Of a stretch of 64,000 nucleotides of DNA, positions 37,555 to 63,227 are shown piece by piece (position 1 is the stretch's first letter; each line of letters starts with the position of its first letter). A program made the position numbers and the translations under genes. The notes beneath the pieces were generated by a model, which saw only the letters and a list, made by a program, of their open reading frames with translations, was not told the origin of the DNA and did not search any database. The stretch comes from Porphyra umbilicalis (Eukaryota > Rhodophyta > Bangiophyceae > Bangiales > Bangiaceae): NCBI GenBank assembly GCA_002049455.2, contig KV918785.1:295868-359867 (forward strand), given 5' to 3'.

Positions 37555-37573
37555 GGCGCCGCGCGGCGGCCGC

Positions 37574-37616
<43 letters not shown>

Positions 37617-40161: not shown

Positions 40162-43100
40162 CTACCCGCACCGTTGGCGCCGCCACTGGCACGGCCGTGG
40201 GGGCCGTCCCGGCCTCCGCGACCCCGGGGTCGTCCCCGCCTCTGCGACCGGCGCGTCGGCGACGACAGGTCGGCGCCAACGCTCCCACGACGTGGGTGAA
40301 CAGCGCATCCACCCGTAGCCGGCCTCGTAGGTACCCGCCTCGATCGCAGCCGCGTGCCGCGTCGCCTGGACTGGGTCTTCCTGGGGTGGCGCGCGTGACA
40401 CGGTGTACCCCCGGATGTGGGGGTAGATGCTTCGACCCTGCATGCTCTTGATGGCAATCTTGGACATGTTGCGCGCCGCGTTGGTGTCTCGCCCGACGTA
40501 CGTCGCGGGACAAGCGACGTTGGTGCACAGCTTGACCCCCCACAGCGCCAGCGGGTCGGTCCCAAACGCCCACTTGCCGTGAGCCGCAATCGCCTGCAGC
40601 ACCTTTGTCCGCACCGCCTCTGCGTGCTCCTTGGCGCGCTGGGCAGCCGCACCGTCCCGTGGACCCGACCGACTGCCGGTCGTCACACCCCGTCGCGCGC
40701 GCCGGCCGCCGCGGAGGGGCGAGGCGCGCTTGGCCGCCGACACCGACGCGCGATGCGCGTAGCTGCTTGCCGCCTTGAGGGGCGTCAGGTCGACCGGCGA
40801 GTCGGGCGACACGTACGTGTTGCACAAGCCGTGACCACACTCTGCACACGTCTGGCTCGTATTGTGCTCGTCCACGTACACGAGGTGCACGTGTTTGGCC
40901 ATGTGCCGCACGAGGTCGACGCTGCCGGCGCGCGGCCGACACCGCCCAATCGCCAGCACCGCCTTGGTGCCGTCCACCGTGCGCCGCAGGAGTCCACCCG
41001 TCAAGCGGCGCGCCAGCACCGCCGCGTACCGCGTGCGCTGGATGAGGGCGTGTAGCCGCGCCTTGCGTTGATCGTACGTCGCGGCCGCCCCGTACGCCGC
41101 CTGATAGGCGTCTGTGTAGGTGCGGGCGATGCGCGTAGTGGCCGCAACCAGCCACGCGCCCCACAAAGCGACTTTGAGGGAGCACCCGGCCGTCAGTGAC
41201 TCGCGCGACACGTCGGGGTTGGTCGCCGCCCACGCCGCCGCCGCTGCCGCCTCGGCGCGCCTGGTCATACAGGCGCCCGTCGCCTCGCGGTACGCCCCCT
41301 TGGAGACGACCAACGTCGCCCCCGCCGGCGGGGCGCGCGCGCGCGGTCTCGTGGTCGTGGCCGCACGCCGAAGGGCGGCACACAGCACCCGTAGGCGGTC
41401 TGCCGACGGAAGCGGCGTGCCAGGCACACCAGGCTGCGGGGACTCTGTCGGCGCACCGGCGGCGGCCGCAGCCGCCGCGCGTTTTGCGTTGCGCGCTGCC
41501 GCCGCCGCCTGTTTCGAGGTGCGCGCCGCGCTGTGCCACACGCGCGCAGCGTGTCGGTGATCCCCGACCGACAGGGCGTGCCACGCCGTCTCTGCGTTCG
41601 CTGCCGCCTCAGCCTTGGCGCCTGCGTTGGCGGCCGCGTCGGTCGACGCCTTGAACAAGGCCGCCTCGCCCATCCACATACACACGTGGTTGGGGAGGCG
41701 CCACGGTTGGACGCCGCCGTCGTTGACCGCGGCGTGTGCGAGCGCGCGCAGGCGCGTCAGCAGCGGCCGCCGGCCGTCGGGGCCGCTTGTCCCCCGCTTG
41801 CGGGCGATCTCTTTCCGCTGCGCGGGCGTCAGCCACTCGTCGCCGTACTGTGGCTGCGTGTACCGCGGCCGCTTGGCCGGGTCGGGGGGGGGGGGGGGGG
41901 CAGCGCAGCAGCCGGCTGCGTCGGTGCGTCCTCCAAAGGCGGCACAGACGCCTGTGCCGCCGGTGTGGCCGCCGGCGGGCCCCCCACCAGAGCTGTACGA
42001 CTCTGCTTTGGGGGAGATCCCTCCGCCCCGGTCGACGCGCCGAGCGCGCCACGGCCGCGCTTTTTGGTCGTCTCGCACACCGCGTCACCGCCGCCGACGG
42101 GTAGGCCCGCCGTGGTGGTCTTGGCCGCACGAACAATCTGGGCCACCGTTGCACGCAGCGTGTCGACGGTCGGCTGTAACCGACCGCTGCGCCACCCGTG
42201 GCACTCTGCAGCTGCGGTCGCGGCCATAGCCGCCCGCGCGAGCGCGTCGGCTGCAATCCGCAGCGCCCGGTACGCCCGGTACACGTGCAGGTGCGGTGCC
42301 GTTGAGAGCGCAAACGGCACTGCGCCGGGGCAGTAGGCAGCGACAATGGACGCGACGCCCGGGTCCCACCCGACAAAGACGAGCGACTTGACAGCGTCGG
42401 GCGAAAACGCCATTCGGTCGAGCTGCGTCCGCACGCTCGCCGTCTCGGTCGGACCCCCCCCCCCGCGACCGCCACTGGCCGCCCTGCGGCGCGCCCGCCG
42501 AGCGGCCGCCGTCGACGCGGCACTGGCGGGGTGTCGTATCGTAAAGTGCACGCCGACGCCGTCCGACATGATGGAGGGGCCAACGTACGTCGAGGCGCGG
42601 ATGATGCCCGCGCGGCGGAGCAGCGCCTTCACGACCAAACCGTCGGCCGTCTTTGGTGGGATTGAACCCCCGTGGACCGCCAGGCGCCGGCGGAGAAGCG
42701 CGCCGCTGATACGCGCGAACGCGGTGCACGTAGCGACTCGGCCAGGTGACGTGTCGGCCGCCTCGATGCCGGCGCCGACGCACAGGGCCTGGGCATAGTG
42801 CAGCAACGGGTAGACGTGCAGCGGCCGCTGTCGCCGGGCCAATGTGTCTAGGTGCAGCAGCGAGCGCCGCCGACCGCCGCCATCCGTGTACACGAGGACG
42901 GTGTCGCAGGCCAGCGCCGCGGCGGCCGTCATGGCAGCCCCATGCGCCGCAGACACTTTGCCCGCCGGCCACTTGAACGACGGCGGGCGCGTGCCGTCGG
43001 CGGCTTGCAGGCCGGCAACGAGGACCGCAATCAGTGCCGTGCGGCGCTGTCCTTCGAGACCGCCGGGGGCCTGCGGGTAGACCGCGAGGAGGATGCACTT

Positions 43101-45464
43101 TGCAATGGCCTTGACCGCCGACGTGACATGCGTCACATGGTGGATTTCAAACGACGTTGCGACGGTCGCCCAGCCGCCCGTGTCGGGCGGACTCGGCAGC
43201 AGTGTGCTGCACGGCAGCTGCTCTGGCTCGGTTACGGCCGCCGCCACTGCCGCAGACGCGGCAACAAAGGCGGTGTAATCGCCGTCGCCGGTTGCCGCCT
43301 TGATGTCTGCACGCGGCGTGGCGTGCGCGCGCCGCCCCGAGCAAGAGACACACGCCCGCCGGGGGGCGCCGTCAAACGCGTGGACACCGCGACACGAGAC
43401 GGTCGAGGCGACCTGCTTCCACGCAAGCCCGTGGCTGCCCGTCAGCGACGCCGGCACGGCCGCCATAAACTCGTCGAGCGTGCGTCGGCCGCCGACACCA
43501 CCACCCGCACCCAGCCCGCCGCCACCACCGTCGACGCCCTCGAGCAGGCACCGCATCGTGCCGTCCACGACAATGGAGACGAGGCGCAGATGCTGCGTCT
43601 GCGCCGTTGCCAACTCTGTCAGCGCAGCCGCGCCCGCCACCGCATTGGTGACGGCCTCGACAGACGCCTTGGTCTTGCGATGAGCCGAGGTTGTCGGCGG
43701 GCGTCCCGCTGGCGGCGCGCAGTCTGTGGGCGGCCGCGGGAGCCTCCGCCGCCAGACGCCAAAAAACCGGTCGACCGACACGGCCACCGTCGTCGTCACC
43801 TCCCCCGTCATGCGGTACTGGTCGGCGCACGCCAAGTCGCGGCCGCGGTCCTCATTGTGGTCTGACCAGCCGTGGGTGACGGCACGCAGCGGACACGCTG
43901 CGCTGGCGCGCGTGTGGCCCCGCGCGTGACACGCACCGCACCTGGTCCGGCCGCTGCCGGCACTGGCGCCCTTGGCCGCCCGGGCGGCCGCCACGCGCGC
44001 CGCGTGCGCAGCCTTGGCGGCTGCGTCGGCTGGACACGTCCGCACATAGTGCCCCGTCGCCCCGCAGCCACCACAGCGGCGTCGACCAGAGCGCTTGCCG
44101 CCGCCGCTCGCCGGCGCGCCCCCTGCGCCGGCACCCGCGTCGTCGCCCGGGTGGTCCCCCGCGTCGGGGGTTGCCATGGGTATCAAGCCCTTGGCCGAGG
44201 ACAAGACGCTGCTTGCGGCGTGCAGGGCGCGCGCGCGCAGGCGCCGACAGGCGACCACCGCGGCATTGTCGGCGGCTGTCACAGCGCCGGCGGCAGCGTC
44301 TGCCGCGCCGCCGTCCCCAGGGACGGCAGCGGGTGGTCGGTGCGGCGGCACGGTCACCGCGTCGACGGCTCGTAGCACTGCGGTCGAGGCCGCCTCAGCG
44401 TCGCCCAGCGCTGTCGACGCGTACGACGTGGTGCCCCGCGCGTGCACGGGGTTTGCTGCGAGCAGCTTGCCCAGCAGGGTGCTCGCGTCTCGCAAGGGGC
44501 CCACCGGCCCCACGTCGCCGGCCGCCTCGCACGCGGCGGCGGCGGCGGCGACTTCGACCGTCGTTGACCGCACGGCAGATGCGGCACATTGTCGCGCGGC
44601 GTCTACGTGGCCGCCGGCCTTGATGGCCGCGTCCCCGCCGGTCGCACCCAGACGCGTGACGGCGTCGTCACGGTCGAGGTCCTTGTCGACGGGTCCGTTG
44701 ACGGGGCCGTCCCCGCCCCCACCGTCCCCACCACCACTCCCACCAGCTGTCTGTGGGGCGGGGTCGGTCACTGGTGCTGACGGGGGGGGCACCCCGCCGG
44801 GCACACGGGGGCCGCTTGAGACACTCGCCGACGGTGCGAGGCGCGCGGGGACGCGCCCCGTTGCTTGTGGGCGGCTGTCGGGGGCACCCTTCCCCACCCG
44901 AGGGAGCAGACCGCCGTGGTCGCAGCCATTCGCCGAGGCGCGAGTGTCGTCGCCGGGACCGCCCACGGCACCGACTCTGGTAGTCACGGCCACGGCCCGT
45001 GCGCCGCCGCCAGCGGCGCCCCCACCCGCGGGCCCGTTGCCTTCTGCCACACCCGCCTGTGCGCCATTGCCGCTGCCGGCACCACCGCCCGCCATCATGG
45101 CCGACCGCCGCGTCGCGGTGCGGCCGCGACGCGCTCGCAGCGCCGTTGACGTGCCGGGCGCGTCCTCCTCGTCTGTGGACGACAAGTCGTCTGCGTCGCC
45201 GCCGGGTGTCGCCCCAATGCCCCCCAGCGGGACGGTGCCGCACGCACCGGCGCCGGTACCAGCCGCGCGACGCGAGTGTTCGCTGCTGGCGACGGACGGG
45301 GGTGCGTCCACCCGCATGGCGTCGTTCAGGCGAGCACGGGCGTGCCCGCCGACACCCGCCGCATCAGGGACGCGGGGAGTGGGGTCCTGTCGAACAAACC
45401 CCCACACACCAGGGTGTGTCGCCTGCCTCAGAGGCGTACGGGCACTGTCACCCGGGTCGGCCAT
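40162..45464 (-). CDS. Very large Fanzor/TnpB-like RuvC nuclease with zinc knuckles, frame broken at G17
   Basis: Fanzors are eukaryotic relatives of TnpB/Cas12 and use a guide RNA to cut DNA. The ATG at 45464 lies 237 bp after a TATA box; the frame is open further upstream to 45995, but that part includes the TATA box itself. The first 450 residues are low complexity. Two zinc knuckles follow (CGGCGATGHYVRTC at about 464-477; CGACHARGH at about 507-523). RuvC-I is FVGWDPGVASIVAAY with Asp near 1034. The frame then breaks in a run of 17 G at 41884-41900, and the next frame continues: VDEHNTSQTCAECGHG supplies a Glu and the first zinc pair, CTNVAC the second, and GRDTNAARNM the RuvC-III Asp (codon 40488-40486). 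Total length would be about 1760 residues. Spacing and motif order fit the family well; whether the break is real or an assembly error is open. Confidence 0.85.
41884..41900. repeat. G17 homopolymer at the Fanzor frame break
   Basis: Upstream the coding strand reads DAPTQPAAALPPP, and downstream, in a different frame, DPAKRPRYTQPQYGDEW. A one-base change of the run length would join them. Confidence 0.9.
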
Positions 45465-45700
45465 ACCCCAACGTACCGCGCGCCGTACAGGCGGGGGGCA
45501 CCACGGCGGGTGACACCGTCTACCGGCCGGGTGGGGGAGGGGGGCAGGCGGGTGCGTGCGGCTGCAGCCGCGCTCAACAAGGGGGGGGCGGCGCGCACGA
45601 GACGCCCCGCGCCGCCGGCACGCGCGGCGGCGGGGGGGCGTCGGCCCAGTGTGCGCTGTTGCGCCTGCTGGTGCCGCCCATCGGTCCCGGTCGGTGGCGC

Positions 45701-45707
45701 TTTTATA
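45701..45707 (-). promoter_or_regulatory. TATA box of the Fanzor gene
   Basis: On the minus strand GTGCCTATAAAAGCGCC, 237 bp before the ATG. The same GCCTATAA form precedes other island genes. Confidence 0.6.
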
Positions 45708-46942
45708 GGCACGCGTACGGGTGCCGGCGGCACGAGCGACATGGTAGACGCTGCGACACGACACGGTACGGACCGTCACGGTGTGACCGACGGGGGCGCG
45801 GCACCCATTGCGCTGCTGCGCAGCGGTGTGCCGAGATCGGCGCGGTGCGCCACCAGCCGCGCGCACGCACGTGGTCTTTGCGCGGCGCTGGGGCGGCTGC
45901 AGGCCCCACACGGCACGCCTATGCGGGGTGCCCGATGCGGCGCGTCGCCCAAACAGAGGCAGCGGCGGCCGACCGGCGTGCGTGACAGCGTGCACGCGAC
46001 AGGGGCGCCACGGGCGCGTTGGGTGTGGCTACAAACGAGTACATTGTGTCACACATGGGACCGACAGTCCGCGGTCACGGCGCTCGCGAATGGTCGGAAG
46101 TTGTGGAAAGCGCCTTGTATGTCTGTAAGCGCGCGTCTATCGGTGCGCCACCAGAGATCGTCATATCGCCATATATATTGTCTATTACCCCTCGCAAAAC
46201 TTGACCCTCACAGGCCTCCAACTCACATGGCAGGACAGTGCGGCCGTTCCATCAGCCGGATGCATCGGCCGTGCCAGACAACACCCACCACGCCCGTTGT
46301 TGCAGGGTGGCGCTGCAGCCACCACCTCCCACCGCTGCGTTCAGTGACTGGTACTGCACGGCACTTGGCCCTGGGTAGGCGCGCCCGCGGGGGGTTGGTG
46401 AGCAGGACATGGCATGCTGGTTAGGTGGGGGGGGGGGGTGGTAGGAAGTATGGGCTGGCGCCGGGAGGCTCTGGGATGCTCGTGCGCGTGTGGTGGGGCC
46501 GTTCGCACCGTGCGGTAGGATCGACGGCTGCGCCCGTCCCGTGCCCGTGCTGTGGTGGTACCGTCATTCCCCGTTGATCAGACACCCCTGCGGGGTTGCT
46601 GCCACACCCGTTTGAGACGGCTACTTTTTCCCAGGTCGTCGCCGGAAGGGCCCTGCCTGGTACAACCAATGGCGGTTGGGGTTGTGCAGCAGTCACCAGA
46701 CCGCCTGGCATGGAGCGAGAAAGTGCCTCGATCGCCAGTCTGTGGGCCTCCGTCGGCCGCCTCGCTTGAGTGGTATGTGTCTGTCGGCGACGAGGCACGC
46801 GGCGGGTACTGGCTACTGTGGTGCACCGAAAAAGGGGGGTGGGGGGTGCGTGCACTGCACAAAGCGCGCCCCCACCGGCAAGGGCCCAAACAGCGCCGTC
46901 GCGTCGTCCGGGCAGACGGTGTCCGCCACGTGGGCCCATGGG
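45708..46942. other. Region between Fanzor promoter and TATA array
   Basis: Frames are open on both strands (for example 46552-46992 plus) but show no recognisable motif. Confidence 0.4.
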
Positions 46943-47429
46943 CCGCGCGCCCCGCGCGCACGGGCCCGACGTGCGCCCGCGAGCGCCTATAAAAGGGGTG
47001 CGTCGCGGCCCGCCGCTGCGTCGCGTGGGTGCCGGGCAGTCGCGTCGCCGGGTGGCTGCACCGCGCCGCGCGCCCCGCGGGCGGGGGCCCGACGTGCGCC
47101 CGCGCGCGCCTATAAAAGGGGTGCGTCGCGACCCGCAGCTGCGTCGCGTGGGTGCCGGGCAGTCGCGTCGCCGGGTGGCTGCACGGCGCCGCGCGCCCTG
47201 CGGGCGGGGGCCCGACGTGCGCCCGCGCGCGCCTATAAAAGGGGTGCGTCGCGGCCCGCAGCGCATCGCGTGGTTGCCGGTCGGACGCGTCGCCGGGGGT
47301 GGCTGCACGGCGCCGCGCGCCCCGCGGGCGGGGGCCCGACGTGCGCCCGCGCGCGCCTATAAAAGGGGTGCGTCGCGACCCGCCGCTGCGTCGCGTGGGT
47401 GCCGGGCAGTCGCGTCGCCGGGTGGCTGC
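46943..47429 (+). repeat. Four tandem copies of a TATA-promoter unit, period 123-124 bp
   Basis: TATAAAAGGGGTGCGTCGCG starts at 46988, 47111, 47234 and 47358. Each is preceded by CGACGTGCGCCCGCG and followed by GTCGCGTCGCCGGG and GGTGGCTGCAC. Unit spacing is 123, 123 and 124 bp with few substitutions. All TATA boxes point right. No conserved ORF starts within a unit, so the array looks like a multiplied promoter or a set of very short non-coding transcription units. Confidence 0.9.
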
Positions 47430-48251
47430 ACCTGCGGCGCACCGGCTCCTGCTGCCCCTGCGGCGCACCAGCTCCTGGCCCCGTGTCTGGGGCCGGATCG
47501 TCCCTGTCCCTGCGCCCGTGGTGCGGCGGTTGGCCGCGGGGCGACCGGTGCGTGGCCTGATGTTTTTTCTAAAGTACCGTTGTTATCGGATTTCGTTTTT
47601 CACATTCTGGGTGGCACCCCCCTGACTTGCTCGTACACGCAAGTGTCTGCCAGGGTCGTGCGTCACAACGACGACATTCGTGATTGACATGGTGCACCCT
47701 CGTTGGGGGTATCTCCCAGTTATATATCACCCTGATATAAAACTGGAGCGTATCGAACCGGATATTGACTGTCCACTGTAGCGCTCATCGAAATATTTGC
47801 GTATTCCGACCTTCGGAAATCGGTGACAGGCTATGAAACAGAGTGTGCGGTCGAGATTTCGATACATCAAGAAACGGTTGGATCTGTGTACGGTATCGCG
47901 GCGCGACGAACCGTGACCGCGGCGTACGCGTACGACTGGCATTGACGCGAGTGGGTGTCTGCTGCTGCTCTCTCTTCGGTGCCCAACGAGGACTGTGTCA
48001 CACCTGCCCGGCGCACTGTCGTACCCCCCCGCAAAAGGCCACATACCGGGTGGCACCGCGGTTCCAGACGGAACGGTCATGTCGATCGGAAATCTTTTCG
48101 CATTCCGTGATTCCATTGGTCCACGTTTGCTACATGGTTATTGCCACCACTCTACAACTGCCGCCTTTGGCGGGTCAGCGTGTAATGAATTTTGTCTCTC
48201 CAACCAACCGCCCCTCACTCTGACGGGGTTCAAGGGCAAGCACACGTTGTC
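47430..48251. other. Downstream of the TATA array, no gene supported
   Basis: Composition drops to moderate GC. Short frames exist on both strands but none is recognisable. Transcripts started in the array would run through here. Confidence 0.4.
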
Positions 48252-48398
48252 ATGGAGCAAAAGCCGAGCGACCTTTTCGAGTACATCCCAGTGCAACGCA
48301 AACCGCCAAACTACTCTAATGGTACTTGGTCCCAAGTGTACTTCAAGGGACTGCTACGCACAATGGTGGAGCGGGCCGACTTGCCGTCCGCCGCCTAG
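48252..48398 (+). CDS. Small ORF, 48 codons, unknown
   Basis: MEQKPSDLFEYIPVQRK begins a short protein whose composition is not GC-biased, unlike its surroundings. It ends in TAG inside a CTAG that is also the stop of the LRR gene on the other strand. It lies about 900 bp downstream of the TATA array, in the same orientation. No family is recognised, and a spurious frame is possible. Confidence 0.25.
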   Translation: MEQKPSDLFEYIPVQRKPPNYSNGTWSQVYFKGLLRTMVERADLPSAA

Positions 48399-54075: not shown

Positions 54076-56456
54076 GAGCGACGGACCATCGCGCTCGGCA
54101 GCGGACGCAACCGCGCTGGCACCACAGGCCCACTCGCGGCGAAACCAGTTGGCGTCCTCTGGCTCGCCGTGGGGTGCGCGTACACGTGCACAGGGACACC
54201 GCTCGCACGTCGAGGGCGACGGTGCCGCACACTCCCCGTGCGTGTCGTCGGGAGAGTGGCATCCGTCGCTCGCCTGCCACGGGTCGAGCGGGTCACACGC
54301 GCCGCTTGTTCGTTTCGAAGAGGGGAACGCGCCCGGCCGGGTGTGACTTCGACAACCTCGGGAGACCGCCCGCGCCGCGTCGCACCTTTGCCAGACATTG
54401 GTGGACGCCTCTTTCGCTGAGCAGCACCAGGCGTGGTGCGAGCAGAGGCACGTCGAGAACCGCGTGACGGCGGCGACGCGCCATCCGGCGACACAGTCGC
54501 CCGCCCCGCGGCCGACGTGGCAAGCGCCGTCGCGGGTGTCGTGGGAGGCTCGCCACCTTTCGCACCGTCACCTGCCCGGGCACGTCCGCCTCGGTCGTCC
54601 ACGTGAGAGTTCCCGGTGGGGTCCAGGCCGTGTGCGTCCATCCGGCCATGGGTGCCGTCCCCATCACCGTCGCCAGAGGTGGCACCGTCAGACACGCGGG
54701 GGGTACCGGGCGGGCCGTCGCCACCAGAGCCTTCACCGTCCCCACCACCGTCGCCAGAGGCCGCACAGTCAGCCGCACGGGGTCCGGTGCCGGCGGGCCC
54801 GTCCCAATCACCGTCGCCAGAGGTGGCGCCGTCAGACACGCGGGGGGTACCGGGCGGGCCGTCGCCACCAGAGCCCCCACCATCCCCACCACCGTCGCCA
54901 GAGGCCGCACCGTCAGCCGCACGGGGTCCGGTGCCGGCGGGCCCGTCCCCGTCACCGTCGCCAGAGGCGCCACCGTGAGACACGCGGGGGGTACCGCGCG
55001 GGCCGTCGCCACCAGCGGCATCCGCCAACCCCCACTGGCCGGCACCCTCGAAAGCACGACACGCAAGCTCGTCCCCGGTTGGTACACGAACCACAGGTAG
55101 TGGCCCTGACGACGTCTTTTGAAAAAGGTCGGCAAAGCTCTCCGAGTCCTCGCCGTCAAGGTGCGCAAGAGCCTGGTCAACGTCCGGGCCGAGCGCGGGC
55201 GCATTGGCATCCTCTTCGTCGGCCGCGTCTGCGTCGGAGGCGCATGGCAGACCAGGGACGACCCACGGAACAATGGGCGGGGGCTCGGAATCCTGCCGGA
55301 GCGCGTCCACAAGGTCGGCGCGCAAGGCATTCCCTCGGGCCTGAAACAGCCCGTCACTGTCCTCCTCAACAGATGACGGCGGGGGAGCGAGGTGGCGAAA
55401 CGTGCACACCAAACGGTCCTCAACCGACGGGTACAGCACATCGGCAGCAGGCCCCGGATGGAGCGCCAACACCTCCTCCAGCGATCTCCCGGCAATCACC
55501 GCAGCTTCCGTCATGCCCCGCACAAAGGGAACAAAGGAGTCTCCAATACGCTTGGCTAGGGCGACCGTCAGGGTGGGGTGATCGACCCCCTCCCAGGGTC
55601 GAGGCGTGTCGCCATCAATACCCATGTGCACGTCGTACCACGCCTCAAACACACGCAGCAGCACGCAGCGAACTTGGTCCCGCTCTTCGGCCGACGACTC
55701 CAGGGCGAGAGGCTTGCGCAGGCTTGGGGCGCCCAACACCGTCAGACTGTAGCGGTAGTGAGGGTAGGTGGGTGGCTCAAAGCGGCCCTCCTCCAGAGTC
55801 TTCCCCAGAAACTGTAGCGCCCTGGGGCTCTCCAGAAAGGTAAAGACAGCCTTGACCAGCGTCTCAACGGCCTTACGTCGAGCAGCAAATGTCCTCGGCG
55901 CCTCCCTGCAAGAGACGTACAGCTGCTTGGTGGTGTACCCAGCGGCATACTCGGCTGCACTGCTAATGCTGAGCGCAATGGCAGTCTCCGCCGACCAGGC
56001 TCGGAAGAACATGAGGTTGGTGGTGATGCTGTCGTACGCCGTCGTGCGTGCGATGTTGTGGCCTTGATCGTTGTACTCCATCGCCAGAAGGGCGCGCATG
56101 GAGTCACAGAGCGAAACGCTCTGCTCATCTTGGTCGACAATGACGAGGGCGCGAATGATGTCCTCTGCACCCAAGATACCCTCCCGCAGCGCTTGAAGGA
56201 TCGCGCTCACACGATGACCGCCGTCGCATGGAATGAAGATGGACGGGTCCTCACGGTCGAGGCACAAGATCGGTGCATGCGCCTCTTGCAATGTGCGATA
56301 TCGCCGAATGGTTGCCAGGATGTCACGAACCAATGAGCTGGACTGACGGCGGGGCATCAGATCCGGAATGCGCAGGCTTCCGACCTTCACATCGCGCAAG
56401 ACAGTGGGGGGCAGGGGCACCGACCTGTCGGCCGCGCCAGCCAGAGACGCCGCCAT
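54063..56456 (-). CDS. ParB/DGQHR-like domain protein with long repetitive tail
   Basis: 797 residues from the ATG at 56456, which lies about 133 bp after the TATA box (the frame is open to 56708). The N-terminal 400 residues are ordered: PILCLDREDPSIFIPCDGGHRVSAI has the (D/G)GHR signature of ParB/sulfiredoxin and DGQHR-type folds, followed by YNDQGHNIARTTAYDSITTN. ParB-like domains bind DNA and CTP, or act as nucleases or adaptors for DNA modification; no specific role can be claimed. The second half is acidic, then carries a 48-residue tandem repeat, then Arg/Thr-rich sequence. A related GHHR and ART motif pair is found in the ParB-like gene at 58805. Confidence 0.6.
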   Translation of the reverse strand: MAASLAGAADRSVPLPPTVLRDVKVGSLRIPDLMPRRQSSSLVRDILATIRRYRTLQEAHAPILCLDREDPSIFIPCDGGHRVSAILQALREGILGAEDIIRALVIVDQDEQSVSLCDSMRALLAMEYNDQGHNIARTTAYDSITTNLMFFRAWSAETAIALSISSAAEYAAGYTTKQLYVSCREAPRTFAARRKAVETLVKAVFTFLESPRALQFLGKTLEEGRFEPPTYPHYRYSLTVLGAPSLRKPLALESSAEERDQVRCVLLRVFEAWYDVHMGIDGDTPRPWEGVDHPTLTVALAKRIGDSFVPFVRGMTEAAVIAGRSLEEVLALHPGPAADVLYPSVEDRLVCTFRHLAPPPSSVEEDSDGLFQARGNALRADLVDALRQDSEPPPIVPWVVPGLPCASDADAADEEDANAPALGPDVDQALAHLDGEDSESFADLFQKTSSGPLPVVRVPTGDELACRAFEGAGQWGLADAAGGDGPRGTPRVSHGGASGDGDGDGPAGTGPRAADGAASGDGGGDGGGSGGDGPPGTPRVSDGATSGDGDWDGPAGTGPRAADCAASGDGGGDGEGSGGDGPPGTPRVSDGATSGDGDGDGTHGRMDAHGLDPTGNSHVDDRGGRARAGDGAKGGEPPTTPATALATSAAGRATVSPDGASPPSRGSRRASARTTPGAAQRKRRPPMSGKGATRRGRSPEVVEVTPGRARSPLRNEQAARVTRSTRGRRATDATLPTTRTGSVRHRRPRRASGVPVHVYAHPTASQRTPTGFAASGPVVPARLRPLPSAMVRRSWVC
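54655..55015 (-). repeat. 144-bp coding minisatellite in the ParB/DGQHR-like gene
   Basis: Two and a half units of 144 bp encode a 48-residue repeat beginning GGDGPPGTPRVSDGATSGDG. Equivalent positions at 54831 and 54975 are exactly 144 bp apart. Confidence 0.9.
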
Positions 56457-56528
56457 GACACTCTCAGCGTCGCACGGTTGAGGGGGGGGGGAGGTTGAGA
56501 AGCACGACGCCGTCTCGGGGTGTGACAG

Positions 56529-56844
56529 GTGCGGCACCAGGGGGTCAGGTCCGTAACCCGACTGAGCGGACACGCACAGGGTCCAGGTCTTATATAGGCC
56601 TGTGGCACACCAGTGGTTGGTCGGCACACCACGCTCAAGCAGTGTCCGCACCCCCCCCACGTCCCGACCCTCCCCCACGCGGCCACCACGGGTGCGGCCT
56701 GGGGACACCCCTGCGCGTCACCAGCGGGTCCGGTCCGTAACCCGACTGAGCGGGCACGCACAGGGTCCAGGTCTTTTATAGACCTGTGGCACACCAGTGG
56801 TCGGTCGGCACACCGAGCTCAAGCAGTGTACGCAACCCCCCCAC
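56529..56844 (-). promoter_or_regulatory. Duplicated TATA promoter of the ParB/DGQHR-like gene
   Basis: Two copies about 185 bp apart share CCGTAACCCGACTGAGCGG, ACGCACAGGGTCCAGGTCTT and GTGGCACACCAGTGG (plus-strand reading). The minus-strand TATA boxes are TATATAAG (56596-56589) and TATAAAAG (56780-56773). In the upstream copy the box is the centre of a perfect palindrome, CAGGTCT-ATAAA-AGACCTG; in the near copy one arm base differs. Confidence 0.75.
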
Positions 56845-56913
56845 GACGCGACTTTCCCCCAGAGGGCGGCCTCGGAGCACCCCCGCGCGTCGGTGGTGAC
56901 CCCAGCCCCCCCA

Positions 56914-57520
56914 AGGACGCCGGTGGGGCCCCCTCAGAGCACCCCCCCCCAGATGGGTCGCAGTACCACAATCCTATGGAAAACCTGCCAGAGTTGACTC
57001 TAGCAATACCGTTGGTTTTATGGTAGCCTGGTGGGCTACCAAAATGATAACCTGCAGAATCAACCACCCCGACGTGGCTACCGGGGGGCTGCCTCCCCAG
57101 CCCCCTCAAGGACGCCGGTGGAGCCCCCTCAGGACGCCGGTGGGGCCCCCTCAGAGCACCCCCCCCCAGATGGGTCGCAGTACCACAATCCTATGGAAAA
57201 CCTGCCAGAGTTGACTCTAGCAATACCGTTTGGTTTATGGTAGCCTGGTGGGCTACCAAAATGATAACCTGCAGAATCAACCACCCCGACGTGGCTACCG
57301 GGGGGCTGCCTCCCCAGCCTTCCCAAGGACGCCGGTGGGGCCCCCCCAGGACGCCGGTGGGGCCCCCTCAGAGCACCCCCCCCCAGATGGGTCGCAGTAC
57401 CACAATCCTATGGAAAACCTGCCAGAGTTGACTCTAGCAATACCGTTGGTTTTATGGTAGCCTGGTGGGCTACCAAAATGATAACCTGCAGAATCAACCA
57501 CCCCGACGTGGCTATAGGGC
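56914..57520 (+). repeat. Tandem array of 217-bp repeats, three copies
   Basis: Units start with AGGACGCCGGTGGGGCCCCC at 56914, 57131 and 57348, exactly 217 bp apart. Each contains ACCACAATCCTATGGAAAAC then CTGCCAGAGTTGACTCTAGC, and shortly after GGTAGCCTGGTGGGCTACC, a hairpin with 7-bp arms. The core is shared with the array at 49586-50180. Confidence 0.93.
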
Positions 57521-57891
57521 GTGCGTCCTGGGGGGACCCTTGTGTGTCGGCGTGTCTTGGAATGCCCTGCATGTGTGTCCTGGGCGTGCCCTGGGCACGC
57601 CTAGAGCACCCTCCAAGAGATAGGCTGCCACTGTGAAACCATATTGCCTGCCTCGGCTGCTCAAGGAGTGATGTAGTCTCAGCGCAATCCACTTACCAAT
57701 GCACGAACTGGGCGACTCTGTGAGATGAAACCTTGCAGGGGGTGCCCCAGACACCCAGTAAAATTGCGTTTCCAGGCCATATGAGAGAGAGCCTTATTTG
57801 AGCTTCATCAGAGCCTGATTTTGGCGTGGGCAGAATGGACACCAGGCAGTGACCACCTTGCCAGAAGAATGCGTCCTTGATAAGACTAAAT
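57521..57891. other. Spacer, no gene
   Basis: Moderate-GC sequence between the repeat array and the MITE. Nothing recognisable. Confidence 0.5.
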
Positions 57892-58218
57892 GTGGCGGCT
57901 GATTTTACAGTCCGCGATCTATGGGGCTGTCAACATTTCTGACCTATTCAGACCTCAAGAATCGTCGCGTCACGAACTGTCGAACGCCGCCTTCGCCATC
58001 TCCACTGAATCAAATCCCAGAGCAGGGATGTAATTTTCTCGATCCACGACGTTCTGCTGACTTTAGCAGAACGAGGAAAGGACTGGCCATATCACCTATG
58101 AAGAGGGAATCGCGACTCAGGATTGACCCGTGTGACTTGAGATCGAACAATCTTTAACGTGCCGTATCTGCGTTCGATGAACCTCACCTAGATCGCGGAT
58201 TCTAAAATCAGCCGCCAC
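57892..58218. mobile_element. MITE with long terminal inverted repeats
   Basis: The 327-bp element starts GTGGCGGCTGATTTTACAG and ends with the near complement ending AAAATCAGCCGCCAC; the inverted similarity extends about 30 bp to GATCTA. AAAT flanks both ends, a possible 4-bp target duplication. No coding capacity. It is inserted between the two arms of the island. Confidence 0.75.
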
Positions 58219-58695
58219 AAATAGAACTGTCCGTCACTTGTGCCATGCTCCGCTTTCAGACTTTCCAGAGAGGGTCTTGAGACATGAGAACATGGGGGTT
58301 GTTGTGAGGGGTTTGTCATATGACAGCAAAGACACTGAACAACAACTGCCCATCAGTTCAACAGGTAGGGGCCGAGGAAGCCCCCCACTGTGTCGACAAT
58401 GTGTGGCTTTATGGTCCAAAATATTTCTTTGTGGCCCCCCGGGCTACCCCAAAACCGTCCCTATTGCCTGAGTCAACTCTTGTAGGTTTTCCATTGGATT
58501 GTGGTGCACAAGCACCTTCAGGGGGGGGTCGTCCAGACGGCGCCTTGCGCTCCCGGGAGGGGCGGTCAGCCGCCCACACCCACATACCGCCGGCGTCAGA
58601 CCCTCTGTGGGCGTGCTCGCTGCGGTGCGCAACTGGTACGCCTGGCGCACCAGCACTGCTCGTCATTGCGCACGCAGTGCACCCTGCGATACGCC
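58219..58695. other. Promoter-proximal spacer with one inverted core repeat
   Basis: Minus-strand bases 58507-58461 carry the island core ACCACAATCCAATGGAAAAC followed by a diverged GAGTTGACTC palindrome and GGTTTTGGGGTAGCCCGGG. The rest is unassigned 5' flank of the ParB-like gene. Confidence 0.6.
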
Positions 58696-58703
58696 TATAA
58701 ATA
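58696..58703 (+). promoter_or_regulatory. TATA box of the ParB-methyltransferase-SET unit
   Basis: ACGCCTATAAATACGAGG, 109 bp before the ATG at 58805. No further TATA box is seen before the methyltransferase or SET frames. Confidence 0.6.
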
Positions 58704-58804
58704 CGAGGTGTATGTCTGGCTGCGTGGGGTGTGCCCGTTGACGGGTGCCGACGTGCGTCGGGCTCGGACCGGACGCGGTGTGTGTGTGCGTCGCGGCAGT
58801 GACG

Positions 58805-59851
58805 ATGGGGACAACGCCAGCAGCCGGGGGTCCGACCACCAACGCGCCAGAGGCGGGACGCGGGGGTGCGCAAGCACATCGACGTGGTGACGGCGTGGCG
58901 GCGGTCCAACCGCTGCCGGTGGGGGTGGTCCAGCCGCTGCCACCTGCCGCGGCAACCTCCCAGCCGTTGATGACCGACGTGACGGGCAGCCCCCTTGACG
59001 TTGAACCAGACTCCCTCCCAGTGGGCACAACAGTGTGGGTTGAAGTCGGCTTCTTCCGGTACGGGACGCGCTGTCGGTCCGTGGTGCTGGATCACGTCGA
59101 CGAGATCGAGCCGGACTCGCTCAAGGACTTGGCCGCCCACCCGATCCAAGGTCTCGCCATTCGCGGCGAGCGCCACGGCGTCATCGTCGAGGGCCACCAC
59201 CGTCTGCTTGCGACTGAGCGGCAGCTGGCGGGAGAGGGCTACCCCGATGGCTGGACGCGGGTACCCTGGTTGGTCCTCAGGTCCCCCACGACCGAGGCAA
59301 AGGCGGCCAACCCGATCGACGCGACGCGCGTGGTCATGGCGTCAAACAAGAACACGACCACGGCACGGACCCTGCGTATGGCGTCTGTCGACTTCTTCAT
59401 GTCAATGACCTTTGTGCGGGACGACCTGGTTAGGGAAGACGACATCCCCGTCCGCAAAGTGACTCTCAAGGAGGTTCTGCGCAGCGCGGGCAGAGCTGAC
59501 GGGGCCTCGACGGAGAAGGGGCTCGTCAAGTGGATATCGGAGAACCGCACGTACACGTGGTACCGCCTCCTGCAGGCGATCAAGCCGTGGACTTCTGACC
59601 ACCTGACTGCGGCGCGGCAAGCGCGCGCTGCGCCTGTCGACACGCGGTGCTGGGAGCTGTTCCTGTTCCTGGGCCGCCGCGTCGATGATCTGGCCGACGT
59701 GCTCGTCGACGCAGACGGGCCCGCCAAAACGGATGGGGCACCGGCCACGGCTGGCACACGTGCCAGTAGTGGCGGTGGCGCCAGTGCAGGGGGGCGCTCC
59801 CGGGTCGGGTTTACGGACCGCCCGGCGGACTGCCTGCCCCGGGTTGCATGA
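58805..59851 (+). CDS. ParB-like domain protein
   Basis: 348 residues from the ATG at 58805. The core reads VEVGFFRYGTRCRSVVLDHV, LKDLAAHPIQGLAI, HGVIVEGHHRLLATERQL, then WLVLRSPTTEAKAA and VVMASNKNTTTARTLRMASV. EGHHR corresponds to the (D/G)GHR signature of ParB-like domains. ParB-like domains fused to, or next to, N4/N6 DNA methyltransferases are common in phages and plasmids. Here the methyltransferase frame starts 4 bp after this stop, in the same frame. The C-terminus is a low-complexity linker (AGTRASSGGGASAGG). The protein is probably a DNA-binding or targeting module for the methyltransferase; that role is inferred from context. Confidence 0.7.
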   Translation: MGTTPAAGGPTTNAPEAGRGGAQAHRRGDGVAAVQPLPVGVVQPLPPAAATSQPLMTDVTGSPLDVEPDSLPVGTTVWVEVGFFRYGTRCRSVVLDHVDEIEPDSLKDLAAHPIQGLAIRGERHGVIVEGHHRLLATERQLAGEGYPDGWTRVPWLVLRSPTTEAKAANPIDATRVVMASNKNTTTARTLRMASVDFFMSMTFVRDDLVREDDIPVRKVTLKEVLRSAGRADGASTEKGLVKWISENRTYTWYRLLQAIKPWTSDHLTAARQARAAPVDTRCWELFLFLGRRVDDLADVLVDADGPAKTDGAPATAGTRASSGGGASAGGRSRVGFTDRPADCLPRVA

Positions 59852-59854
59852 AGC

Positions 59855-62119
59855 ATGCTCCGCTGCCCTGTGCTGGTGTCCCATCAGTGGCGCAACTTTG
59901 GGGGCCCCTCTCTCCCAAAGCTCGCGAAAGGACCACCCAAGCGCACCAAACGAGGGCGGCGCTCGGGTGCGGGGCCATCCCCATCCCCGTCCGACGAGGA
60001 GGAGGACGCAGACGCCGCCGAGGGCAGCTCTGACGCGCTCATGGACGTCGACCGAGACGGGGTGCCGTCGGTCGCCGTGGACGGTGCGCCCGACGGTGGC
60101 GAAGGCGCGCCGCCAACAAAGGCGCGCCGCGTCAGTCGCGGTGCCGCGGCCGCGCGCGGTGTCGACAGCGTTGCCACGGGTACGGACAAGGCGGCCGCCG
60201 GCGCGGCATCGAGTGCGCCCCGAGACGTTGCAGACGAGGGACGAGCTGCATCGGCCGGCGCCGCGGCGATGACCGCTCCAGCTGCGGGTGCCCCGTCAAA
60301 GCTCTCCGCTGCTGTTGTCGCTGCGGCGGTGGATCGCTCCCAGGCGCTGTGCGAGACTGCTGCGTATTGTGTGATCGACAAGACCACCACGGCGCGCCCT
60401 GTGGCACCGTCTGGTCCCTACGCGACCCCGTGGGAGCGGCTCTGGTGGTTTACCCAGCTCGCGCGCGACTTGACGGCGGCGCACCCGTTTCTCGAAGACG
60501 TCAACGACACGAGGCCCTCACTGCCGACGCCCAAGCGTGCGGGCAAGGCCCCGTCGAAGCGCGCGGGTGCGGCGGACGGGGCGCCGGCGGCGCGCAACAC
60601 CCCCGGTCGTGCTTTCCGCGTCGCTCGACAGGGGGGCACCCTAAAGACCAGGGCGGCCAAGGCGATCGTCGCCGGTGCGACACCGCGTCCGGGACGGACG
60701 CCCGACCCGGTCGGCACCGTCGACCGCGAGCTGCGGGGCTTTCGCGTCAAGGCGCAGATCATGGCGTGCGTGCGATCGTGGGACGTGCTTGCCATCTTGT
60801 GTGGCTTCCCCGACAGTGAAACCATGCTGTCGCCCTACCTGTTGTGGTCCGCCACGAATGTGTGTTTTGAGCCGATCACCGACGCCCGGTTGGGGTTCGC
60901 CCCCCTGGCGAGTCGCCATCGCCTGTGGCATGGGCAACGGCCCTCGGTTGACCCTGCCGTGGTCGACGCCGCTGCGTTGCGGCGGCTGGACGCTTTGCCG
61001 CTGGCGGATCGGGCGTTGCGGACAGCGGCCGTTCGCTTTGTCGAGCACGTCGTTGCCGTTTCCAACGGCAAGGACGTTTGGTCAAACACCTACAACCCGC
61101 TGTCCATGCGCGCTGACATTGGGAGTTTGAGCGGCGCGTCCTTCCTTCGACCCCGGCGCACGCTGGTGGATGGGCTGGCGCCCGTCTTGTCGAGCTACCT
61201 GAAGCAGCTGCGTTTGCCGGTCGAGGCGGACCCCGCCGACGCTGTGCGTGCCCCCGTCGCGCCGGAAGGGGCCCTACCGACAGACACCTCTGTCGGGCTG
61301 GTGGCCGGCTTGACCGACGCGGAGCGTGACGCCTTCCAGGTGGTCGACCGCGCTCTGGCAGAGGAGTGCCGCACGTACGAGCTCGACTTTTGGAAGTTCC
61401 CCGTATCCCGCCTCCAGCTGCGCGTCCAGCTGCTGCTGACGGACATTCCGTGGCATACGCGGCGTGTCGCTGGCAATGACAACTCTGACCACGACGTCTT
61501 TACCGACGCGGACCGGGGGGTGCTGTGTGACTTTGCGACGTCCAGCGTTCGGCAGGGGGGCCACGCCATCATCATGTGTTCCTTCTCCCAGTTTTCGGAC
61601 CTGTCCAAGACGCTCGAATCGTACAAGGCCCCGACGACGAACGAGTCGCTGTGGGCGGTGGACGCGGGCCCCATGGCCTTTATTTGTTCGACGCCGACGG
61701 GCGCGCCGCAAAGCACCACCACCCTCGCCAACCACATGTTTGTGGCCGTACACGCGACGTGGCGCGGCGCGGGGTTGGCCGGCCACCGCATGGTCAACTA
61801 CCGCGTGTTTGACAGTGACGTGTCGAGTATGCCCGGCAACAGCAACGTGTACAACCATGTGACGCAGCCGACGGGTCGCGAGGTCGTCTATGCGGGCGAC
61901 GGCATCCTGCGCCCCGAGCAGAAGCCGGTCAGCCTCTTGCGCGAGCTCATTCGACGCTTCACCAAACCGAGCGACGTCGTGTTGGACCTGTTTGCGGGCT
62001 CCTTTTCAACGGCGGACGCGTGCATCCAGACGCGGCGCCACAGTTGGAGCTGTGACAAGGACCCCGTGGCGGTGCGGTTTGGCAAGCGACGCGTCTTTTC
62101 GTCTTTTGTCCGCTTTTAG
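59855..62119 (+). CDS. Beta-class DNA methyltransferase (N6-adenine or N4-cytosine type)
   Basis: Transfers methyl groups from S-adenosylmethionine to an exocyclic amino group in DNA. 754 codons from the ATG at 59855. The first 150 residues are acidic/Ala-rich linker and a basic KRTKRGRR patch. The catalytic motif IV is LLLTDIPWHTRR near residue 527 (DPPY-type, with TDIPW), followed by GGHAIIMCSFSQFSDL. The SAM-binding motif I is near 708, VVLDLFAGSFSTADACI, then SCDKDPVAVRFGKRR. Catalytic motif before SAM motif is the beta-class order. It has no TATA box of its own, and its frame is the same as ParB-like upstream (TGA at 59849) and SET downstream (TAG at 62117). The conserved motifs look intact, so the enzyme may be active. 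Confidence 0.83.
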   Translation: MLRCPVLVSHQWRNFGGPSLPKLAKGPPKRTKRGRRSGAGPSPSPSDEEEDADAAEGSSDALMDVDRDGVPSVAVDGAPDGGEGAPPTKARRVSRGAAAARGVDSVATGTDKAAAGAASSAPRDVADEGRAASAGAAAMTAPAAGAPSKLSAAVVAAAVDRSQALCETAAYCVIDKTTTARPVAPSGPYATPWERLWWFTQLARDLTAAHPFLEDVNDTRPSLPTPKRAGKAPSKRAGAADGAPAARNTPGRAFRVARQGGTLKTRAAKAIVAGATPRPGRTPDPVGTVDRELRGFRVKAQIMACVRSWDVLAILCGFPDSETMLSPYLLWSATNVCFEPITDARLGFAPLASRHRLWHGQRPSVDPAVVDAAALRRLDALPLADRALRTAAVRFVEHVVAVSNGKDVWSNTYNPLSMRADIGSLSGASFLRPRRTLVDGLAPVLSSYLKQLRLPVEADPADAVRAPVAPEGALPTDTSVGLVAGLTDAERDAFQVVDRALAEECRTYELDFWKFPVSRLQLRVQLLLTDIPWHTRRVAGNDNSDHDVFTDADRGVLCDFATSSVRQGGHAIIMCSFSQFSDLSKTLESYKAPTTNESLWAVDAGPMAFICSTPTGAPQSTTTLANHMFVAVHATWRGAGLAGHRMVNYRVFDSDVSSMPGNSNVYNHVTQPTGREVVYAGDGILRPEQKPVSLLRELIRRFTKPSDVVLDLFAGSFSTADACIQTRRHSWSCDKDPVAVRFGKRRVFSSFVRF

Positions 62120-62236
62120 TCCTCGACGCACGACGGTCGAGCCATTTGCGAGCGAGATGCGGAGCTGGCATCGGCTGTCACGACCACCGTCGGTGCGCTC
62201 GACCGCAACGTGCTCTCTGACGATCGCCCGCCGGCG

Positions 62237-62836
62237 ATGCGGCCTGCGCGGCGCAGCATTTTGCAGCCACCCGCGACGGAGATGGTGCCACACACGGTGC
62301 TGTCGAGGCACATTGTGGACCACGTCGTGGCCGCGTACGTCCCGCTTGCTGCCGCGGACGTGGTGACACCCGTGGAGATTGGGGCGATATACGCCACGCA
62401 TCCGCGAAAGTGGCGGCGTGCCCTTCGGTTTCTTTTTGAGGATTTTCCGCTCGCGTCTCTCCGCGCCGCCGACGCGTCTGCCTGTGGCGTCCGCCTTGGC
62501 GTCTCGACCGTGCCGGATGCGGGCCTCGGCTGCTTTGTCAGCCGGCCGGATGGCTTTGGCGCCCAACACACGGTCGGGTCCTTGTGGGGTCCGGTCGTGT
62601 GGCACAACTGTCAGATGGCGTAGTACGAGCAAGTCAAGAACAGCTTCTATGGGCCGATGCGCGGAAACGCGCGTGTGACGCCCCAGCTCTGCCGCTTGAA
62701 CGGGCACAAGATGTCTCACTGGGCCAAGCCGTTTTGGGTTGTGCCCCTCGGCGGGTCGGCGCTCGGGTTTGTCAACCACTGGGGACCGGTCATCGGCGCG
62801 GCGCGTGTCGCCGCCGACGCGGCGGCCGGCGCGTGT

Positions 62837-62916
<80 letters not shown>

Positions 62917-63227
62917 CGGTCGCGCCAGCGCATGATGCGCGTTATGCGAGTGCTGCGGGTGCTCTGGCACCGGTCGCGCCCGCGCCGGGTCCCACGCGGT
63001 CCCCATCGCCCGCGGCCGAGGGGCCCAACGCGGTGTTGAAGTGGTACACGGACATCCGTGCGGTGGAGGACCTGTCCCGGGACGACACCCTCACCCTCGT
63101 GACGACGCGGGCGGTTGCGTTTGGGGAGGAGCTGCTGGTCGACTATGGGGCCGACTTTGAGTGGAAGTTTGTGCAAAAGGCGCGCGCCGGCACGGGACGG
63201 AGCTCCCCGCAGGCGTTTGACCGATAG
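62237..63227 (+). pseudogene. SET-domain lysine methyltransferase, interrupted by a TAG and an 80-G run
   Basis: SET enzymes methylate lysines, usually on histones. The N-terminal SET half (GVRLGVSTVPDAGLGCFVS, GSLWGPVVWHN) is followed by an in-frame TAG at 62621. The same frame then continues sensibly (YEQVKNSFYGP, LCRLNGHKMSHWAKPFW, GSALGFVNHWGPV) into a run of 80 G. The C-terminal half resumes in a different frame: GPNAVLKWYTDIRAV, TTRAVAFGEELLVDYGADFEW, the classic GEELxxDYG end. Both halves are well conserved, so the gene was recently functional or is only apparently broken. The frame is open upstream to the methyltransferase stop, so the two may once have been fused. The start at 62237 is the first ATG after that stop. 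Confidence 0.78.
62837..62916 (+). repeat. 80-base G homopolymer inside the SET gene
   Basis: Eighty consecutive G, the longest homopolymer in the window. It would encode polyglycine and sits exactly where the SET reading frame changes. Confidence 0.9.

What the first reader, a model, noticed from the sequence alone, without database searches (positions are those of the whole stretch)
40162..63227. Compact gene island that may be a new type of large mobile element or integrated DNA virus
Seen: about 23 kb with 9-10 tightly spaced genes, TATA boxes at near-constant distance before most transcription units, two related repeat arrays, and a gene set (Fanzor-like nuclease, two ParB-like proteins, DNA methyltransferase, SET methyltransferase, Ulp1-like protease, LRR protein) unlike the flanking host genes. 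Known: such combinations occur in giant viruses, phages and large eukaryotic transposons. Inference: the island is foreign and modifies DNA and chromatin. No capsid, polymerase, ATPase or integrase is visible, so it matches no named class.
Basis: partly seen in the sequence, partly recalled or inferred. Interest (0 to 1): 0.87.

Follow-up and report, generated by a model that had tools for sequence, protein, structure and literature searches.

The report
Giant Fanzor-tipped mobile element family
The gene island is one copy of a very large jumping DNA element scattered through the genome of a red seaweed; it carries a Fanzor-type nuclease gene at one end, its ends resemble those of small bacterial jumping genes, and no known transposase was recognised in it.

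Summary
The island is real and mobile, but its limits are wrong. It is one copy of a dispersed DNA element family in an 84-Mb genome (Porphyra umbilicalis, inferred). The left end is window 39924; the right end lies outside the window, at contig position 400805 (window-equivalent 104938). Thirteen contigs carry both ends in one orientation, 14-65 kb apart in twelve. Thirty-four left and 34 right junctions share the same ends with different flanks, without terminal inverted repeats or target duplication, but with a strong one-sided motif (TNAW) beside the right end. A Fanzor ORF reads towards the left end. This polarity matches bacterial IS200/IS605 elements with TnpB. A lineage with ~30%-identical proteins keeps the order Fanzor-LRR-Ulp1-unknown-ParB-like. 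Arrays inside share an 18-bp dyad. In one fully read copy, the transposase, integrase and reverse-transcriptase matches trace to a nested copia retrotransposon; no capsid or DNA polymerase family matched. One weak PHROG 'endonuclease' match remains untraced. Not a recognisable virus. Most likely: a giant IS605-like transposon retained by RNA-guided cutting and moved by an enzyme not yet recognised.

The parts
39924..64000 (.). Part of the mobile element that lies in the window; it continues through an assembly gap to contig position 400805 (window-equivalent 104938)
   Evidence: blastn against other copies; right terminus located by search and junctions
39924..40161 (-). Element terminus (3' end on the Fanzor strand): two hairpin-forming stretches, candidate omega-RNA 3' part; the left flank would be the guide
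   Evidence: 34 fetched junctions with this end; RNA fold z = -1.93; 93-100% identity in the four 60-bp bins for six copies
40165..42084 (-). C-terminal part of Fanzor: TNB zinc ribbon and last RuvC motif
   Evidence: PF07282 3.4e-6; substitutions by codon position 177/138/304
41832..46028 (-). N-terminal part of Fanzor with CCHC zinc knuckle and first RuvC motif; in another frame than the C-terminal part in this copy
   Evidence: PF15288 1.6e-4; three motifs in one 1,458-codon open frame in a C5 copy
46942..47440 (.). Tandem array of ~123-bp units, each with TATAAAAG
48398..49399 (-). LRR protein ORF
   Evidence: PF12799 2.7e-9; relative in same order on C5
49584..50179 (.). Tandem array, ~191-bp units, with the 18-bp dyad
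50470..52506 (-). Ulp1-like (C48) protease ORF
   Evidence: PF02902 5.3e-4; 31% identical relative on C5, 1e-15, itself PF02902 0.013
52519..54567 (-). ORF of unknown function (ATG at 54075), conserved in diverged elements
   Evidence: 50 matching places, the most diverged at 29-34% identity; no family match in Pfam, PHROGs or NCBIfam
54066..56717 (-). ParB-like ORF 1 (weak assignment), with 144-bp coding tandem repeat
   Evidence: phrog_1033 0.024; relative on C5 1e-14 over residues 294-490
56904..57514 (.). Tandem array, 217-bp units, with the 18-bp dyad (one mismatch)
58417..58580 (.). Single unit of the ~220-bp satellite that forms long arrays further right in this and the C88 copy
58742..59848 (+). 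ParB-like ORF 2 (motif only)
   Evidence: GHHR-like motif read by eye in the translation; no library match
59852..62116 (+). N6/N4 DNA methyltransferase ORF
   Evidence: PF01555 1.1e-12, phrog_67 3.3e-19
62350..63227 (+). SET-domain remnant, pieces in two frames in this copy
   Evidence: PF00856 0.041

Best explanation
The island is the left part of a giant DNA transposon family of Porphyra umbilicalis. Shown: exact ends, many copies at different sites, no terminal inverted repeats, no target-site duplication in the pairs tested, a target motif (TNAW) only beside the end opposite the Fanzor, and a conserved gene order in a diverged lineage. Inferred: the element moves like an IS200/IS605 element, by insertion next to a short motif without duplicating the target. 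Fanzor, with an omega-RNA made from the element's terminus and a guide read from the neighbouring DNA, would cut empty sites that carry the motif, so that the element is copied back by repair and kept. Ulp1, AAA, methyltransferase, SET and ParB-like proteins would serve the element's chromatin and copy control, the ParB-like ones perhaps by binding the 18-bp dyads. The enzyme that starts transposition was not recognised; it is either one of the orphan ORFs (the unknown ORF at 52519-54567 is the first candidate) or acts from elsewhere.
For: Copies: the 45000-46000 query has 41 matches in the genome. The left-end query has 40 matches, 40 scored of 112 first-look candidates; the right end 40 scored of 200. 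Junctions: of those hits 37 of 40 (left) and 36 of 40 (right) reach the terminus; 34 of each were read. After dropping one duplicate flank on each side (33 each), right-flank position +3 is A in 31 of 33 and +1 is T in 25 of 33. Positions +1 to +4 are each at p <= 3e-4. Left-flank positions are weak, the best being -6 at p = 5e-4. TSD test on 11 paired ends: longest repeat 4, sum 7 against 8.5 in shuffled pairs. Polarity: the Fanzor stop lies ~240 bp from the left end, as in Fanzor omega-RNA loci (PMC10432273, passages read). One open frame with three Fanzor motifs exists in a C5 copy. Synteny: Fanzor, LRR, Ulp1, unknown, ParB-like in the same order on C5 at 29-33% identity for the last four, E 8e-8 to 1e-15. 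Similar copies: C88 and C232 are 97-100% identical to the window in the 1-kb bins from 45.9 to 52.9 kb, 100% in some.
Against: No HUH (PF01797) or serine (PF00239) recombinase in the genome by Pfam model. No RepHel or tyrosine-recombinase hit inside the 13 paired element intervals. So the engine of the proposed mechanism is missing. The omega-RNA rests on position, a modest fold score and conservation; no RNA data. Among the named ORFs, codon-position counts show a clear third-position excess only for the Fanzor C-terminal ORF; the others look near neutral in the up to six copies compared, and LRR runs the other way, 39/28/18, so most sampled copies may be decaying. ParB-like ORF 2, methyltransferase, SET and AAA were not found in the 40 kb of C5 searched; their expected place lies beyond that stretch. 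Pairing of left and right ends rests on contig and orientation; only C31 was read from end to end. The right-flank motif could be the target choice of an unknown transposase and not a Fanzor TAM. No empty site was seen.
Confidence: 0.62

Rival explanations
1. A giant non-autonomous element mobilised in trans, for example by the Helitrons of the same genome; Fanzor and the other genes are passengers.
For: Helitron Rep domains are present (28 matches), and Fanzor elements that appear to be moved by Helitrons in trans are reported in Chlamydomonas (PMC3627910, passages and sections read). The right end reads CTAA followed by T in 25 of 33 distinct flanks, like the CTRR-T of Helitrons (recalled).
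Against: The left end is ACCAGT, not TC or T, and the base before it is A in only 15 of 33, so a Helitron A/T target is not met. A conserved gene order across ~30% protein identity suggests more than passengers.
Confidence: 0.17
2. A homing-type element: Fanzor cutting plus host repair is the only engine, and no transposase exists.
For: In the complete C31 copy, Fanzor is the only named nuclease family outside the nested retrotransposon in Pfam, and of the named ORFs the only one with clear third-position excess.
Against: Homing would return to matching sites, whereas the copies sit at unrelated sites with only a ~4-bp motif in common. One PHROG 'endonuclease' match (phrog_27406, 1.9e-4) was not traced to its frame; it is in none of the ten frames rescanned.
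Confidence: 0.1
3. An integrated DNA virus or a virus remnant.
For: Methyltransferase, Ulp1-like protease, SET and AAA genes also occur in large DNA viruses (established knowledge, recalled).
Against: No capsid or DNA polymerase match among 122 frames of 150 codons or more; no close relatives in four viral-contig scans; transposon-like copy number and exact ends.
Confidence: 0.06
4. Host segmental duplications or assembly artefacts that look like an element.
For: The window copy lies beside an assembly gap, the C232 pair is head to tail with an N near the junction, and the sequence right of the gap repeats part of the island before a long array.
Against: The same two ends at 33 distinct flanks each are hard to get from duplication or misassembly.
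Confidence: 0.03

Closest known systems
IS200/IS605 elements with TnpB (bacteria; anatomy recalled)
   Same: No terminal inverted repeats, no target duplication, terminal hairpins, nuclease gene reading to one end, short conserved motif beside the other end
   Different: Tens of kb, not 1-2 kb; eukaryotic; no Y1 (HUH) transposase in the genome by Pfam; about ten further genes
CMe-1A Fanzor1 elements of the red alga Cyanidioschyzon merolae (PMC3627910, section 12 read)
   Same: Red alga, Fanzor, no terminal inverted repeats, no determinable target duplication, no class assigned
   Different: About 3 kb, against tens of kb and a conserved multigene module here; sequence kinship not tested
Spu-1 Fanzor elements (PMC10432273 and PMC3627910, passages read)
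   Same: Omega-RNA at the end behind the Fanzor stop codon, conserved bases at the other end, no transposase inside
   Different: 2.1 kb, ~30-nt inverted repeats, putative TA target duplications
Helitron2 (PMC3627910, section 9 read)
   Same: Hairpins at both ends as a class feature; here a short inverted match AGCGAAGCT placed asymmetrically near the ends
   Different: No RepHel inside; left end does not begin with T; no A/T target; the right-end fold is weak (z -0.84)
Starships and other giant eukaryotic transposons (search listing and starts of abstracts)
   Same: Size, cargo, exact ends
   Different: Starships are classed by a tyrosine recombinase; none lies in the 13 paired intervals

Membership tests
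IS200/IS605 | No terminal inverted repeat, no target duplication | tested here: met
   34 junctions each side, 11 pairs
IS200/IS605 | Target motif on the 5' side only, relative to the nuclease strand | tested here: met
   TNAW at the right flank, weak left flank
IS200/IS605 | Y1 HUH transposase | tested here: not met
   no PF01797 match in the whole genome, six frames
IS607 | Serine recombinase | tested here: not met
   no PF00239 match in the genome
Fanzor (OMEGA) system | TnpB/Fanzor RuvC and zinc-ribbon motifs | tested here: met
   PF07282 over cut-off in the window and C31 copies, under it in C5; motifs in one frame in a C5 copy; motif names recalled; the NCBIfam TnpB model only 0.076
Fanzor (OMEGA) system | Omega-RNA ending at the element end | tested here: inconclusive
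   position, fold z -1.93, conservation; no RNA data
Helitron / Helitron2 | RepHel protein | tested here: not met
   28 matches, none in the 13 paired intervals
Helitron / Helitron2 | 5' TC or T, A/T target | tested here: not met
Starship / Crypton | Tyrosine recombinase | tested here: not met
   17 matches, none in the 13 paired intervals
Polinton / nucleocytoplasmic virus | Capsid, DNA polymerase, packaging ATPase | tested here: not met
   122 frames of a complete copy; frames under 150 codons, split genes and genes across fetch borders not covered; the AAA protein tested is CDC48/AFG2-like
Bona fide ParB proteins | ParB N-terminal domain | tested here: inconclusive
   E 0.024 for one, none for the other; structure prediction of ORF 2 failed

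The most novel reading that the evidence does not exclude
A new class of giant eukaryotic transposon that works like a scaled-up IS605 element: an unrecognised, element-encoded enzyme inserts it beside WTNA without target duplication, and a terminal Fanzor with a guide taken from each new site cuts empty alleles to keep it there. The ParB-like proteins and the dyad arrays would form a partition-like or silencing system of the element.
Probability: 0.35. Interest if true: 0.9.

Novelty: new variant of a known kind. Interest (0 to 1): 0.74.

Why it matters
What Fanzors do for their carriers in eukaryotes is open; the 2023 Fanzor paper discusses it as an unanswered question and found no transposase within the Spu-1 repeats (PMC10432273, passages read). 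Here is a family with dozens of base-exact insertions, a candidate TAM that can be read from the insertions themselves, a candidate guide for each copy, and very similar copies. That makes the 'cut the empty site and copy back' model directly testable. It may also point to a transposition enzyme that the family models used here do not recognise, and to element-borne methyltransferase, SET, Ulp1, AAA and ParB-like genes, part of them kept in order over deep divergence.

Tried and rejected
Virus: disfavoured. Host gene cluster: rejected by copies and junctions. Target duplication: none beyond chance in 11 pairs. Known recombinases: no Y1 or serine recombinase in the genome, no Helitron Rep or tyrosine recombinase in the 13 paired intervals. 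The transposase-type PHROG matches (phrog_8463, 956, 157) were traced to the copia polyprotein frame inside the C31 insertion. Structure prediction of ParB-like ORF 2 and the unknown ORF failed (mean pLDDT 34.1 and 31.0), so no fold search was made. Relatives: the methyltransferase has one database relative, from P. umbilicalis on a contig as long as C25 and so probably this locus; the unknown ORF one unnamed relative at 97%; ParB-like ORF 1 none. Scan of prokaryote genomes with the methyltransferase: none. PDB search with Fanzor: nothing meaningful. An early reading that C31 carries the long satellite was my error: the file held two loci; the array is in C25 and C88. Gene content of the short 14-kb copy on C56, which might have shown the core genes, could not be read. 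Untraced: one Ntox3 Pfam match (3.4e-6), phrog_27406 'endonuclease' (1.9e-4) and phrog_4276 (3.5e-4); none is in the ten frames rescanned.
Full report
1. Where the window lies. The window is G000:C25:295868-359867 of an 84-Mb genome in 665 contigs. The only database relative of the island's methyltransferase is BU14_0070s0059 of Porphyra umbilicalis, 91% identical over 60% of the query, on a contig of 448,974 bases, the length of C25. I therefore take the host to be P. umbilicalis; this is an inference.

2. It is a dispersed repeat with exact ends. Window 45000-46000 has 41 matches in the genome, ten of them over the whole query at 94% or more, the window itself included. Comparison with copies on C31, C363, C5, C88 and C232 shows homology starting at window 39923 or 39924 in most copies (25 bases later in one C5 copy) and unrelated sequence outside. 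The junctions put the first invariant base at 39924; the A at 39923 is flank. The window ends just before a 2,959-base assembly gap. Walking through C272 and C31 gave the right end: homology stops at C272:75813 / C31:85699, and further copies move it to the CTAA that ends at C272:75806. In the window copy that is C25:400805. Within the two capped hit lists, thirteen contigs carry a left and a right end in the same orientation, 14.2 to 84.5 kb apart. The 84.5-kb interval on C5 contains two left ends and is composite, and the C55 left end is truncated. The pairing is by contig and orientation; only C31 was read from end to end. Length differences come partly from long satellite arrays (C25, C88) and from insertions such as a 5.9-kb stretch in C31, in which the frames of a copia retrotransposon lie. 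Copy numbers are lower bounds: 40 scored of 112 candidates for the left end, 40 of 200 for the right.

3. The ends. In the capped lists 37 of 40 left-end hits and 36 of 40 right-end hits reach the terminus; the others stop short. I read 34 of these 37 and 34 of these 36 (and earlier loci; listed). So the sameness of the ends is partly by choice; the change to unrelated flank at that base is not. One further locus, C55 left, lacks the terminus. Left is ACCAGTAGTCACC in 33 of 34 and differs by one base in C141; right is ...GCTTCGCTAA with at most one mismatch. One duplicate flank on each side was removed (C48/C625 right, C141/C274 left), leaving 33 each. On the right the flank reads T (25 of 33), A/G/C (32 of 33), A (31 of 33), T or A (28 of 33); positions +5 to +11 are unremarkable and +12 has p = 0.03. 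On the left only weak preferences appear, the best at -6 (p = 5e-4). Among 11 paired ends the longest match between left and right flank is 4 bases, no better than shuffled pairs. There is no terminal inverted repeat; both ends contain AGCGAAGCT in inverted orientation, 2 bases from the right end and 29 from the left (read). The right end folds weakly as single-stranded DNA (z -0.84).

4. Fanzor and the candidate guide RNA. Two minus-strand frames carry a CCHC knuckle and a RuvC-like motif (41832-46028) and the TNB zinc ribbon (40165-42084; PF07282). In this copy the two frames are shifted against each other; in a C5 copy one open frame of 1,458 codons holds all three motifs. The stop codon lies ~240 bases from the left end. 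The minus strand of that end folds with z = -1.93 (8 of 200 shuffles as good), and the four 60-bp bins of the first 240 bp are 93-100% identical to the window in six copies, while the 1-kb bin from 40923, in the coding part, is 87-95%. In Fanzor loci the omega-RNA comes from the transposon end and the guide from its 3' flank, and TAMs are short (CATA, TTAAN; PMC10432273, passages read). On the Fanzor strand the conserved right-flank motif reads WTNA directly 5' of the element. So guide side and motif side are arranged as in IS200/IS605 with TnpB (recalled for the bacterial elements).

5. Other genes. In order from the left: LRR, Ulp1-like protease, unknown ORF, ParB-like ORF 1 (all minus strand), ParB-like ORF 2, methyltransferase, SET remnant (plus strand), then outside the window two AAA proteins (PF00004: 1.4e-41 on C272; two frames on C31), the one tested being closest to AFG2/CDC48. 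ParB assignments are weak (the observation check). On C5 a second lineage has the same order Fanzor-LRR-Ulp1-unknown-ParB-like; the last four are 29-33% identical with E-values from 8e-8 to 1e-15, while its Fanzor region is 75-94% identical. The left ends on C5 are 94% and 96% identical to the window, and a right end 98% identical to the query lies on the same contig; that it belongs to the same element is assumed. The other genes were not found in the 40 kb of C5 that I held. Diverged relatives of the unknown ORF also lie in the C33 interval, twice in the C5 interval, and on C62 and C274. The end module thus looks shared or exchanged between lineages whose other genes are old.

6. Arrays. Arrays at 49584-50179 and 56904-57514, a unit at 58417-58580 and the long satellites share the dyad GCCAGAGTYRACTCTGGC: 7 hits in the window with up to 3 mismatches against 0.10 expected, all in the element, and 39 matches of a slightly looser 17-base form in each of the satellite stretches L024 and L031. 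A fourth array, 46942-47440, repeats a TATAAAAG unit four times. A binding-site role for the dyad is inference.

7. No engine found. All 122 stop-to-stop frames of 150 codons or more of the C31 copy, taken per 10-kb fetched stretch, were scanned. Pfam finds AAA, LRR, methyltransferase, TNB, zinc knuckles, one untraced Ntox3 match and copia retrotransposon domains; PHROGs finds ATPase, methyltransferase, three transposase-type and one endonuclease-type family, and others of unknown function. Rescanning ten frames put the reverse transcriptase, integrase core and all three transposase-type matches in the frames of the C31 insertion. The endonuclease-type match (1.9e-4) and the Ntox3 match are in none of the ten. 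Genome-wide Pfam searches gave no Y1 or serine recombinase and no Helitron Rep or tyrosine recombinase inside the 13 paired intervals. Genes under 150 codons, split genes and families absent from these libraries remain possible.

8. Activity and decay. The C88 and C232 copies are 97-100% identical to the window in the 1-kb bins from 45.9 to 52.9 kb, which suggests fairly recent movement or conversion. But among the named ORFs a clear third-position excess appears only in the Fanzor C-terminal ORF (some short or antisense frames also exceed 0.45 with fewer changes), and several genes here are broken (SET, Fanzor frame). Most sampled copies are probably not autonomous now.

9. Literature. Searches for Fanzor with Porphyra umbilicalis (0 papers), Fanzor with red alga and transposon (6 papers, 5 listed), Fanzor with Cyanidioschyzon (3 papers, 2 listed) and two or more of Fanzor/Porphyra/Pyropia/Rhodophyta from 2023 (609 papers, the 8 listed hold no Fanzor) showed no description of this family in the listings. 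The nearest report I read is the unclassified CMe-1A of C. merolae (PMC3627910, sections 9 and 12 and passages). The P. umbilicalis genome paper was not among the 10 listed, so its repeat annotation was not checked.

10. Verdict. A giant, Fanzor-tipped, IS605-like mobile element family without a recognised transposase. Family status and ends are shown; the mechanism is inferred.

Noticed in passing
window 8134-9957 and 32095-33916: A 1.82-kb sequence occurs twice in inverted orientation at 99.8% identity, each copy beginning CACAGC and ending GCTGTG: probably two very recent insertions of one short DNA element.
   Followed up: partly
window 22254-23414 (-): Plavaka-type transposase ORF (PF18759, 2.5e-9) between those two inverted copies.
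   Followed up: no
window 38964-39851: hAT-like non-autonomous element: 20-bp perfect inverted repeats and an 8-bp flanking duplication CCTCAGTC, next to the left end of the giant element.
   Followed up: partly
window 34000-38000: Four kilobases of 84-86% GC with long homopolymers.
   Followed up: no
window 6074-7984 (-): Actin-family gene (PF00022, 2.8e-132).
   Followed up: no
G000:C232:86995-120000: Two element copies head to tail, 20.7 kb between left ends, the first cut short at window-equivalent 57852, with an N near the junction; real tandem or assembly join.
   Followed up: no
G000:C141 and C274 left flanks: Two copies share an identical 40-base left flank but have different right flanks; the flank may be a repeat, or one copy is recombinant.
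   Followed up: no
G000:C274, C8, C334, C3, C141: Several copies match only about 45000-45741 of the query and then leave the window sequence: perhaps subfamilies with the same end and different interiors.
   Followed up: partly
C31 element frames (A2 set): One frame matches Ntox3 (3.4e-6) and one a PHROG endonuclease family (1.9e-4); neither was traced to its frame.
   Followed up: partly
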